Shown here: one piece after another, positions 878 through 8,060 of the stretch
How the letters are laid out: each line of letters starts with the position of its first letter
Position numbering within the stretch: position 1 is the stretch's first letter
Virus record (IMG/VR): IMGVR_UViG_3300032334_000094
Coordinates: 1-20,104 of that record
DNA length: 20,104 nucleotides
Strand: one strand, 5' to 3'
Source: a virus
Position numbers and translations under genes: made by a program
Notes under the pieces: generated by a model
What the model was told of the DNA's origin: nothing
Seen by the model: the letters and a program-made list of their open reading frames with translations, nothing else
The model's database searches: none

Positions 878-988
878 TTATTCCTCGTTACAAGAATTAA
901 CAATATAAACACAAGCTGCTTCAAAAGCCACAAAGATTACTGCAAAAGGTAAAAAGCATATACCTATAATACCTACTAAATATTTCAT
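878..988 (-). CDS. 36-aa single-pass membrane microprotein
   Basis: A short frame reading MKYLVGIIGICFLPFAVIFV at its N-terminus, then an acidic tail ending CNEE. Residues about 4-31 are strongly hydrophobic and fit one membrane span. The ATG overlaps the stop of the upstream HNH gene (ATGA), with GGGGGT just before it, and the stop lies 2 nt from the next gene's start. It fills a gap of about 110 nt that would otherwise be empty. Small hydrophobic proteins of this kind occur several times in this genome. Role unknown. Confidence 0.6.
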   Translation of the reverse strand: MKYLVGIIGICFLPFAVIFVAFEAACVYIVNSCNEE

Positions 989-1275
989 TTTACCCCCAAA
1001 TGGTTGTTAATAAATAACCAACCTATAGTTTTTCTGTGCGCTTCTTCCCATGCTGCTATTCTATCATGTTTATCTAATGATTTGTCATTATCTATCATGT
1101 GGTGGCATTGGTGGCATAAGAATGCTATACGGTGATCGTGGGCTTTTATACCTGTGCCTTTACCATCTCTTAGCTGATTACTATGTGCGGCCACTACAGT
1201 ACCGTCTTGCATAGAACACATCATACATGGTGCGCTATCTGCTAGTTTTAATAGTTTAGGGTTTCTGTAATTCAT
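985..1275 (-). CDS. YbcO-type (DUF1364) HNH-like putative nuclease
   Basis: A 96-aa protein that matches the layout of the E. coli prophage protein YbcO. It has a CxxC pair at C17/C20, then AAHSNQLRDGKGTGIKAHD, where the family shows an AH..l...GtG.K..D block, then CHQCHHMID with C54, C57 and H58/H59. These are the expected zinc- and metal-binding residues of a small beta-beta-alpha HNH nuclease. In lambdoid phages this family lies in the nin-like region, as it does here beside NinB. It overlaps the upstream frameshifted gene by 20 nt and is followed by an ATGA overlap with the membrane microprotein. A structure-selective or nicking nuclease role is likely from the family; the substrate is unknown. 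Confidence 0.85.
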   Translation of the reverse strand: MNYRNPKLLKLADSAPCMMCSMQDGTVVAAHSNQLRDGKGTGIKAHDHRIAFLCHQCHHMIDNDKSLDKHDRIAAWEEAHRKTIGWLFINNHLGVK

Positions 1276-1809
1276 TGCATACTTTTGTCATCCAGTTAAT
1301 TAAATCGTCTGGTGTATATTCTCGTTGATATTGAGTACATCTTTTAGTGCCTTTTACATTACCACATATTGATCTGTCTGTAGATGCTAAATTTTTAGGT
1401 GGCATTGGTGGTAAATTATCTTTAGCTATTCCACAAATATATAACTTTGTATTTTTGTGTGCAACATGGCCAAAATCAAATTGGTCAATTTCAATTGTAT
1501 ATCCGCCAAATTCATCTTCCCCCCCCCCGCTAAAGGTAAAGGGGCTTCTTTCCATAAGCGACTGCCAGCAGGATGTTCTAATATGCCACCATTAAGTCTT
1601 ACTTGAGCTAATGCTAAATAAGCTAATTGTTTTTCACCTTCTCTAGGATTGGCCATGTGAGATAACATACCCCAAGCTCTACATGGTGGATGTGCTATAA
1701 CAGGCATTTTTTTACAAAATGTTCTAGCATCACGATTAATGTCATACACATCATACACATTAAAATCTTTGTAGCGACTATCATCTCTAGCAAATAAAAC
1801 TGCTATCAC
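1256..1809 (-). CDS. HPPC-motif phage protein, split by a frameshift in a G10 tract
   Basis: Two overlapping frames read as one protein if a -1 shift occurs in the ten-G tract (plus-strand C 1519-1528). The first frame gives VLFARDDSRYK, VYDINRDARTF, HPPCRAWG (about residues 40-47) and GGILEHPAGSRLW, then falls into a nonsense tail ending at 1426. The other frame supplies EDEFGGYTIEIDQFDFGHVA, LYICGI and PPMPP and ends at 1256. Related phage proteins, as I recall them, carry both halves in one chain, so the join is confident. The joined product is about 184 aa. I prefer the GTG start at 1809, which makes a GTGA overlap with the ninB stop and follows a G-rich ribosome site, over the ATG at 1842. 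PPC recalls motif IV of C5-cytosine methyltransferases, but no SAM-binding motif is seen. The protein may be intact by slippage, truncated, or a product of a read error. Confidence 0.75.
1519..1528. repeat. Ten-base C homopolymer (G10 on the coding strand)
   Basis: Ten consecutive C on the plus strand, in an otherwise AT-rich phage. It lies exactly where the HPPC-motif gene changes frame. The coding strand is read GCG GGG GGG GGG AAG. One extra G, or a -1 ribosomal slip, restores the downstream frame (GAA GAT GAA), as would loss of two G. Confidence 0.9.
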
Positions 1810-2162
1810 AAATCCCATCCCCATCCCATAGTTTGCGCCCATATTTCTATTTGATGCTGATATTCTGACATTTCGCTTGTAGTAAGTTTGGTAGTAGATT
1901 TGATAACTTCACATGGAAAGCCACATATTTCTGTTTGTGATCTAAGCAGCCGGTAAGACATAAGTTCGTGCATGTTTTGTTTGTCTATGCCTAAATGGTT
2001 ACCAATGCTTGTATAAAGCTCCCATAACCTTTCGTTTTGCTCTAAACTACGACTTGCTTTAGCTTCTACAACTGTTACACGCCATCTTTTAGTCCAATCA
2101 AGTGATCTTAATTTTATAATCAGATTTTCTAGGTTGCTTTCTACTAAATTCCATTTCAGCAT
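1806..2162 (-). CDS. ninB: NinB/Orf-like recombination protein
   Basis: A 118-aa protein resembling lambda NinB (Orf), which is 146 aa and acts as a recombination mediator that binds single-stranded DNA and SSB. The recognisable part is the segment WRVTVVEAKASRSLEQNERL, continuing into WELYTSIGNHLG, which corresponds to the RSLDQN-type block of the family, followed by a late segment EYQHQIEIWAQTMGW. The start is preceded by AAAGGATGGGATC. The protein is somewhat shorter than lambda NinB. It overlaps the upstream 56-aa ORF by 65 nt and meets the next gene by a GTGA overlap. It probably works with the annealing protein, exonuclease and SSB-like protein encoded in the divergent operon. Confidence 0.85.
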   Translation of the reverse strand: MLKWNLVESNLENLIIKLRSLDWTKRWRVTVVEAKASRSLEQNERLWELYTSIGNHLGIDKQNMHELMSYRLLRSQTEICGFPCEVIKSTTKLTTSEMSEYQHQIEIWAQTMGWGWDL

Positions 2163-6984: not shown

Positions 6985-7258
6985 TATGGTAAATAGACCG
7001 CCACATTACTTGGTGGGTGGGATTGAAGCAATTGATGTAATTAAAAGTCGTTTAACTAAAGAAGAATATATTGGGTATCTAAAAGGATGTAAGCTTAAAT
7101 ATGATTTACGCTATCCATTTAAAGATCATCCAGAGCAAGATTTGGAAAAGTCTGATTGGTATAAGAATAAGCTATTAGAAGCTACAAGGGATGAAGTGGC
7201 TATTAATCCACCAGAAATTGATGCTCAATTGCAGCGTATTGAAATGGCAGATGACTGA
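6977..7258 (+). CDS. DUF3310 phage protein
   Basis: A 93-aa protein with the conserved DUF3310 pattern: NRPPHYLVGGIEAIDVIKSR, then LTKEEYIGYLKGCKLKYDLR and a following KSDWYKNKLLE. The family is widespread in phages of many hosts, and T7 gp1.7, reported to have nucleotide kinase activity, is often linked to it. I cannot tell whether this short member shares that activity. AAGGAGTCATC precedes the ATG, a strong ribosome site. It overlaps the PP-loop enzyme gene by 8 nt, so the two are probably coupled. A role in nucleotide metabolism is plausible. Confidence 0.85.
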   Translation: MVDMVNRPPHYLVGGIEAIDVIKSRLTKEEYIGYLKGCKLKYDLRYPFKDHPEQDLEKSDWYKNKLLEATRDEVAINPPEIDAQLQRIEMADD

Positions 7259-8060
7259 TCCATTTAGGATCATAGAACCCACCGTTATTAGCTTTAGCGG
7301 TGGTCGTACTTCTGCGTATATGCTTTGGCGTATATTGCAATCAAATAATGGTTTACCTTCAGATGCTATTGTATGTTTTGCCAACACAGGCAAAGAAGAA
7401 GAAGCCACTCTTAAATTTATAAATGATTGTTCAAATAATTGGAATGTAGATATTCATTGGGTTGAATATTTACTTGACGATCCTAAATTCAAAAAAGTAA
7501 CATTTGAAACTGCTAGTAGATTAGGTGAACCTTTTGAAGCATTAATTAGGCATAAAAAGTATTTGCCTAATGCTGTTACTAGATATTGTTCTATAGAGCT
7601 TAAAATTAGAACTATAAGTAAGTATTGTAAGTCAATAGGATTAGATTGTGGTGAGAATGATGCTTGGGTAGGTATTAGAGCTGATGAACCAAGACGTGCA
7701 GCTAAAATACAAAGAGATAGAATACCATTAGTATCTGCTCAAGTTACTAAAGAAATAGTAGGTAAATTTTGGGCTAATAACAGTTTTGATTTGGGATTGT
7801 CAAATAACAATGGTGTAACGCCTAATGGTAATTGTGACTTATGTTTCTTAAAGTCTAAAATACCTAGTTTAATTCAAGAAAAACCAGAAAGAGCTATTTG
7901 GTGGGCCAATATGGAATTATTAGCAGAAGAAATTGGTAATAACCCTACAGGCATGAAATTTAGACTTGATAAACCATCTTATGCACAAATGCTTAAATTT
8001 ACTGAAGATCAAGTGCAAATGTTTGATGATGAAGCGATCCCTTGCTTTTGTGGAGATTAA
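7251..8060 (+). CDS. PAPS-reductase-like PP-loop (adenine nucleotide alpha-hydrolase) enzyme
   Basis: A 269-aa protein. The PP-loop is SGGRTS at residues 16-21 (ISFSGGRTSAYML), the ATP-pyrophosphatase signature of the CysH/PAPS-reductase superfamily. FANTGKEEEATLKF and RYCSIELK with C113 follow, as in family members. Later cysteines form CDLC (C195, C198) and CFC (C265, C267), which could bind an iron-sulfur cluster or zinc. The start at 7251 overlaps the DUF3310 gene; an upstream in-frame codon at 7191 lies inside it. Phage members are usually annotated as PAPS reductases, but sulfur transfer or nucleobase/tRNA modification is equally possible. It is the last gene of the plus operon, followed by a structured gap and a terminator. 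Confidence 0.85.
   Translation: MTDPFRIIEPTVISFSGGRTSAYMLWRILQSNNGLPSDAIVCFANTGKEEEATLKFINDCSNNWNVDIHWVEYLLDDPKFKKVTFETASRLGEPFEALIRHKKYLPNAVTRYCSIELKIRTISKYCKSIGLDCGENDAWVGIRADEPRRAAKIQRDRIPLVSAQVTKEIVGKFWANNSFDLGLSNNNGVTPNGNCDLCFLKSKIPSLIQEKPERAIWWANMELLAEEIGNNPTGMKFRLDKPSYAQMLKFTEDQVQMFDDEAIPCFCGD

What the first reader, a model, noticed from the sequence alone, without database searches (positions are those of the whole stretch)
1519..1528. G10 homopolymer splits a conserved phage gene
Two frames encode halves of one phage family protein (HPPCRAWG half and EDEFGGYTIEID half) and meet exactly at ten G on the coding strand. A -1 shift, or one added G, restores the full-length product of about 184 aa. 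Long G runs are rare in this AT-rich genome and are hot spots for polymerase and ribosome slippage. This could be contingency switching, programmed frameshifting, or a sequencing artefact.
Basis: partly seen in the sequence, partly recalled or inferred. Interest (0 to 1): 0.75.

Follow-up and report, generated by a model that had tools for sequence, protein, structure and literature searches.

The report
Poly-G switch in phage DNA-modification gene
A run of ten G's splits a probable DNA-modifying gene of a lake phage into two reading frames; the run is kept in a whole clade of related phages, but its length keeps changing, so the gene looks like one that can be switched on and off by copying slips, a trick known from bacteria and rarely if ever described in phages.

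Summary
Window 1519-1528 is C10 (G10 on the coding strand) and separates the two halves of one PHROG 12600 gene. Fourteen related freshwater-phage contigs form one clade that carries the tract (9-12 G). Six copies are in frame, seven are -1 and one is +1; 49 tract-free relatives are intact. Two contigs identical over 10,571 bases differ only by one G in the tract, which changes the frame. The GGG codons never break up, although G is 2% of comparable third positions (chance about 4e-9). Both halves stay under purifying selection even between two -1 copies. The frame state changes at least four times on the tree. This points to a maintained, length-variable contingency (phase-variation) tract rather than a pseudogene or a fixed programmed frameshift. 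A sequencing contribution to individual lengths is not excluded. The protein has a C5-methyltransferase-like fold and PPC/EHP motifs but no SAM motif I. Its slot between ninB and an HNH gene holds, in sister phages, true C5 methyltransferases, Mom-like proteins, other methyltransferases, or nothing. It is therefore probably an anti-restriction DNA-modification cassette with a stochastic ON/OFF tract. Actual switching and activity are not shown.

The parts
1519..1528 (-). G10 homopolymer on the coding strand, the point where the reading frame breaks; G9-G12 in relatives
1426..1842 (-). frame-0 ORF: N-terminal half (PPC and EHP motifs) plus a 30-residue out-of-frame tail; 138 aa truncated product
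   Evidence: PHROG 12600 positions 4-96
1256..1518 (-). C-terminal half (EDEFGGYTIEID...QFDFGHVAHKNTKLYICGI...RCTQYQREYTP) in the -1 frame
   Evidence: PHROG 12600 positions 97-189; the mechanical ORF is 1256-1555
1806..2162 (-). ninB/Orf recombination mediator gene, the upstream border of the cassette slot, overlapping the start of the split gene
   Evidence: (PHROG 72)
985..1275 (-). HNH endonuclease-like gene (YbcO/DUF968 type), the downstream border of the cassette slot

Best explanation
The G10 is a hypermutable contingency (phase-variation) tract inside an accessory phage DNA-modification gene. Strand slippage during replication changes the tract between about 9 and 12 G. When the tract length keeps the frame, a full-length protein of 182-196 aa is made (ON). 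In other states, as in this window, translation ends after a 99-138 aa fragment that lacks the FGHxAxKxT motif and the conserved C-terminus (OFF). Phage populations would thus contain both modified and unmodified virions, a hedge between hosts whose restriction cuts unmodified DNA and hosts that cut modified DNA. Shown: conservation and homogeneity of the tract, length variation with frame change, purifying selection on both halves, and a slot that otherwise holds DNA-modification genes. Inferred: that the variation is frequent and reversible within populations, that OFF products are inactive, that the protein modifies DNA, and the hedge itself.
For: One gain of the tract in a supported clade (100/96) with at least 4 in/out frame changes inside it, within the range of shuffled labels. 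Two contigs identical over 10,571 b except one G of the tract, one in frame and one -1. Frame broken in 8 of 14 tract carriers against about 1 of 50 relatives without it. All tract Gly codons are GGG in 14 of 14 copies, while GGG is 2% of Gly codons in window ORFs and G is 2% of four-fold sites in the gene; the chance of three such sites staying G is about 4e-9. A pattern allowing any Gly codons found only the six GGG in-frame copies in the whole viral collection. dN is far below dS in the second half between out-of-frame copies: 5 nonsynonymous of 20 changes, p = 1.5e-7. Three contigs begin at the tract, as reported for phase-variable poly-G tracts (PMC4235727). The slot in sister phages holds PF00145 C5 methyltransferases, PF25680 Mom proteins or PHROG 757 methyltransferases. 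The AF2 model (pLDDT 86.5) has C5 methyltransferases as its top PDB matches.
Against: All data are assembled consensus sequences; no reads or clonal populations were seen, so reversibility and rate are not shown. Short-read poly-G lengths carry errors (PMC4235727, PMC4965091), and the identical contig pair may come from related samples. Motif I (SAM binding) of C5 methyltransferases is not recognisable, so enzymatic activity is uncertain. The slot is empty in many sister phages, so the gene is dispensable and loss of frame could simply be tolerated for a time.
Confidence: 0.62

Rival explanations
1. Sequencing/assembly artefact in length: the tract is real, but true copies all have the in-frame length and the -1/+1 consensus calls are short-read or PCR slippage errors.
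For: Homopolymer G/C runs of 8 or more are error-prone on Illumina (PMC4235727), and PCR slippage rises from G8 to G11 (PMC4965091). Some contigs end at the tract and one shows G16 at its very end. Homopolymer frameshifts in N4-like Vibrio phages sequenced by 454 were corrected by Sanger data (PMC3670811). Purifying selection in -1 copies fits too.
Against: It needs wrong consensus calls in 8 of 14 independent assemblies, including G9 tracts (L003, L015) that should be read well. Both members of two related pairs (window/L003, L014/L015) are -1 with different tract make-up. No other indel separates the two 10.6-kb identical contigs. It does not explain why the tract is kept unbroken.
Confidence: 0.17
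2. Recoding: the G run is a slippery site where ribosomes shift -1 (G GGG GGG), or RNA polymerase slips, so full-length protein is made at some level from any tract length.
For: G10 offers a slippery heptamer; -1 is the commonest state (7 of 14). Tract homogeneity and selection on both halves are equally expected.
Against: The frame relation is not conserved: 6 in frame, 7 at -1, 1 at +1. No stable or conserved structure lies downstream (z -1.65 to +0.5). The frame-0 tail runs about 30 codons past the tract. Genome-wide data in E. coli and Buchnera found transcription insertions in A/T runs only, not in G/C runs (PMC5574713).
Confidence: 0.11
3. Pseudogene: a poly-G mutational hot spot broke a dispensable gene in this lineage; the gene is decaying.
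For: The gene is accessory: the slot is empty in 21 of 52 classifiable relatives, including phages with an identical NinB protein.
Against: Both halves keep dN much lower than dS between -1 copies, with no other frame breaks. In-frame copies are interspersed on the tree. The tract resists synonymous decay.
Confidence: 0.08

Closest known systems
Poly-G phase-variable restriction-modification genes of Campylobacter/Neisseria (e.g. the Type IIG enzyme of C. jejuni NCTC11168, PMC4889913)
   Same: Poly-G tract of similar length (about 8-11) inside the ORF; slippage would switch frame; DNA-modification context
   Different: Bacterial and experimentally shown to switch; here phage-borne in an AT-rich freshwater phage, with sequence evidence only and a one-gene cassette
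PHROG 12600 / 'putative DNA methylase' gp8 of Rhodobacter phage Ebor (PMC11980548)
   Same: Same protein family by tblastn, 40% identity over 95%; interpreted there as probable DNA methylase against host defence
   Different: Ebor and the tract-free relatives have no homopolymer and an intact frame
C5-cytosine DNA methyltransferases (M.HaeIII, M.HhaI, DNMT3; PF00145)
   Same: Predicted fold; PPC (motif IV-like), E-H-P (ENV-like) and FGH..K.T.L (motif VIII-like) in the same order
   Different: Compact (about 185 aa), no recognisable motif I, no Pfam match
Mom DNA-modification cassette of Mu-like phages (PF25680)
   Same: Occupies the same ninB-HNH slot in sister phages
   Different: Unrelated fold; no homopolymer of 8 or more G seen in those slots

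Membership tests
SSR/homopolymer phase-variable (contingency) gene | Homopolymer tract inside the ORF, longer than expected by chance | tested here: met
   G10, expectation 0.0024
SSR/homopolymer phase-variable (contingency) gene | Tract maintained against codon bias in relatives | tested here: met
SSR/homopolymer phase-variable (contingency) gene | Tract length differs between near-identical genomes and changes the frame | tested here: met
   (10,571 b, one G difference); consensus-level only
SSR/homopolymer phase-variable (contingency) gene | High-frequency reversible switching within a clone, with a phenotype | not testable with these tools
   no reads, isolates or host available
Programmed -1 ribosomal frameshift gene | Conserved -1 frame relation at the slippery site | tested here: not met
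   6 in frame, 7 at -1, 1 at +1
Programmed -1 ribosomal frameshift gene | Downstream stimulatory structure | tested here: not met
   z -1.65 to +0.5, different folds
PHROG 12600 | Profile match over both halves | tested here: met
   E 4.5e-32 and 2e-9
C5-cytosine DNA methyltransferase | Pfam PF00145 match | tested here: not met
C5-cytosine DNA methyltransferase | Motif IV catalytic PPC and motif VI Glu | tested here: met
   HPPCRAWG and EHP invariant in 34 sequences; assignment to motifs by eye, supported
C5-cytosine DNA methyltransferase | Motif I FxGxG SAM-binding loop | tested here: not met
   invariant LFAR instead
C5-cytosine DNA methyltransferase | Fold | tested here: inconclusive
   all top PDB matches are C5 methyltransferases, E 4e-5, but TM-score only 0.43-0.49
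C5-cytosine DNA methyltransferase | Methyltransferase activity | not testable with these tools
   -

The most novel reading that the evidence does not exclude
Phages themselves carry simple-sequence contingency loci: a poly-G tract in a DNA-modification cassette switches the modification state of individual virions, so that a phage population bet-hedges against host restriction in the way phase-variable bacterial methyltransferases do.
Probability: 0.5. Interest if true: 0.78.

Novelty: new variant of a known kind. Interest (0 to 1): 0.63.

Why it matters
Homopolymer phase variation is a textbook strategy of bacteria, often in restriction-modification genes, but the literature searches here turned up no phage gene described as having one. 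If confirmed, phages use the same stochastic switch to diversify their own DNA modification against host defences. Their annotated 'broken' genes next to homopolymers should then not be dismissed as errors. The slot (empty, C5 methyltransferase, Mom, PHROG 757, PHROG 12600) also gives a ready set of natural variants for testing which modification beats which defence.

Tried and rejected
Relatives of a virus record cannot be drawn from genome sets (error). Pfam and NCBIfam do not name the protein. A profile search of PDB sequences gave nothing useful. No nucleotide match of the structural region in cultured phages; protein matches only below 60% identity. Downstream RNA structure as frameshift stimulator rejected. 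Most other hits of the tract pattern are unrelated G runs, several next to a matching C-rich arm like a terminator stem. Re-initiation at the ATG inside the second ORF (1555) was considered and dropped by inference: it lies in the conserved LW codons and is out of frame with the second half in the in-frame copies. A paper search on simple sequence repeats in bacteriophage genomes returned nothing. Reading papers outside the open library and read-level data were not possible.

Full report
What is there. The window is a 20,104-base IMG/VR virus record of 35.6% GC. It has tail, head and replication genes of a podovirus-like phage with no close cultured relative. At 1519-1528 the + strand reads C10, so the coding strand reads G10. 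It is the only G/C run of 9 or more in the record, against an expectation of 0.0024 runs of 10 or more. The two flanking reading frames match consecutive parts of one family, PHROG 12600 (positions 4-96 and 97-189 of 203).

Relatives. Protein-pattern scans of 2.9 million viral contigs, made without reference to the tract, brought in over 100 contigs with this gene. Fourteen sequences including the window carry the tract, always at the same place...LPLA-GGG-(E)DEFGG.... Its make-up is GC+G10+AA in the window and GCT+G9+AA, G11+AA, G11+AG, G11+A, G12+A or G12+AA in others. Six are in frame, seven are short by one and one is long by one. Non-carriers have LPLGDEVDEFGG or LPLAGEFPDEFGG and an intact gene: 49 distinct full-length proteins against one copy seen with an in-frame stop (L038) (Fisher p = 6e-6 for frame breakage). 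In 15 tract-bearing contigs, two of them over 35 kb, the tract is the only run of 8 or more G on either strand.

The tract is kept. The carriers form one clade (bootstrap/SH-aLRT 100/96) with a single gain of the tract. Within it, all three tract glycines are GGG in every copy. G is only 2% of letters at 45 comparable four-fold sites of this gene, and GGG is 7 of 349 Gly codons in 18 window ORFs. With the fitted rate out of G (3.30) and tree length (1.95), three such positions would stay G throughout with probability about 4e-9. This is a rough model and assumes independence. A pattern that allows any glycine codons recovered only the six GGG in-frame contigs.

The length is not kept. On the tree the in/out state needs at least four changes; shuffled labels need 2-6, mostly 5. 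The sharpest case is contigs 3300046356_000009 and 3300048572_000015: identical over 10,571 bases except for one G in the tract, one out of frame and one in frame. Three further contigs begin at the tract, about 0.03 expected (rough). Contig breaks at poly-G tracts are a known sign of phase-variable genes in short-read data, and also of poor accuracy there (PMC4235727).

The gene is not dead. Between the window and L003 (both -1) the first half has 9 synonymous and 2 nonsynonymous changes and the second half 9 and 3. Pooled over three pairs of -1 copies, the second half has 5 nonsynonymous of 20 changes where 80% would be expected (p = 1.5e-7). So the out-of-frame state is recent, reversible, bypassed, or wrongly called.

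What the protein is. An AF2 model of the in-frame copy L010 (pLDDT 86.5) matches C5-cytosine methyltransferases best: M.HaeIII E 4e-5, then DNMT3 and M.HhaI, with modest TM-scores of 0.43-0.49 (viral library likewise). Invariant residues include HPPCRAWG, EHP and FGHxAxKxT, in the order of motifs IV, VI and VIII. The SAM motif I is not recognisable and Pfam does not match. The family member gp8 of Rhodobacter phage Ebor was called a putative DNA methylase by its discoverers (PMC11980548). The tract lies in a loop between the EHP and FGH motifs, so the truncated product lacks the latter.

The slot. Phages with a NinB protein identical to the window's have the same neighbours, ninB and an HNH gene, but something else between them. 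Found there were nothing; canonical C5 methyltransferases (PF00145, E 1e-52); Mom-like proteins (PF25680, E 8e-39); or PHROG 757 methyltransferases. Of 52 classifiable relatives, 21 were empty, 8 held PHROG 12600, 7 Mom-like, 5 canonical C5, 4 PHROG 757-type and 7 'other'. Most of the 'other' cassettes inspected were again methyltransferase-like by their motifs; the rest were a GNAT-like gene and an ATPase-GNAT fusion (read by eye). PHROG 757-type and PHROG 12600 proteins align across the PPC, E-x-P and FGHxAxKxT motifs (hhalign E 4e-4, probability 36%). So this is an exchangeable DNA-modification slot, and the split gene is very probably a DNA-modification or anti-restriction gene.

Mechanism. 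A maintained homopolymer of labile length in a gene under selection, in a slot dedicated to DNA modification, fits a contingency locus best (0.62). Length miscalling must be taken seriously (0.17) but would have to hit 8 of 14 assemblies, including G9 tracts. Recoding (0.11) is disfavoured by the unconserved frame relation, the lack of structure and the resistance of G/C runs to transcription slippage (PMC5574713). A plain pseudogene (0.08) is disfavoured by dN/dS.

Not shown: switching within a clone, activity of the protein, host, and any fitness effect. The novelty statement rests on the searches made here in an open-access library and is not exhaustive. The nearest remark found is that N4-like phages have long homopolymers of unclear meaning (PMC3670811).

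Noticed in passing
between window 1806-2162 (ninB) and 985-1275 (HNH); loci L280-L359: The ninB-HNH interval is a cassette hot spot that exchanges DNA-modification genes (C5 methyltransferase, Mom, PHROG 757, PHROG 12600) or is empty, with a conserved overlapping start MG(A/S)(N/D)YG(M/L)G(M/L)G.
   Followed up: partly
L203, L246, L248, L244, L259 (WGG motif about 15 nt downstream of the tract site): In distant family members the D-x-W-G-G motif is coded TGGGGGGGG (G7-G9); L259 (Saprospiraceae MAG) is frameshifted exactly there with G7.
   Followed up: partly
L031:3439-3448: A run of nine or more C in the C-terminal part of an in-frame relative's gene, a second homopolymer site in the same gene.
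   Followed up: no
L186/L195 (IMGVR 3300045049_000339) and L158/L179 (3300029959_000046): Two unrelated phage contigs have both their ends at a long G run, with different run lengths at the two ends (G10/G11 and G11/G12), as if genomes were broken at a length-variable tract.
   Followed up: partly
L083 and L005 (3300027754_000222): The two ends of this 37.5-kb contig carry the same region from two different strains (77% identity), one end starting right after the G tract: probably an assembly chimera at the tract.
   Followed up: partly
L294, L295, L310: A 384-aa ABC-ATPase-GNAT fusion-like gene sits in the same slot, in L295 directly upstream of a tract-free PHROG 12600 gene.
   Followed up: no
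window 7191-8060: PAPS-reductase-like gene (PHROG 424), a common phage accessory gene of uncertain role.
   Followed up: no
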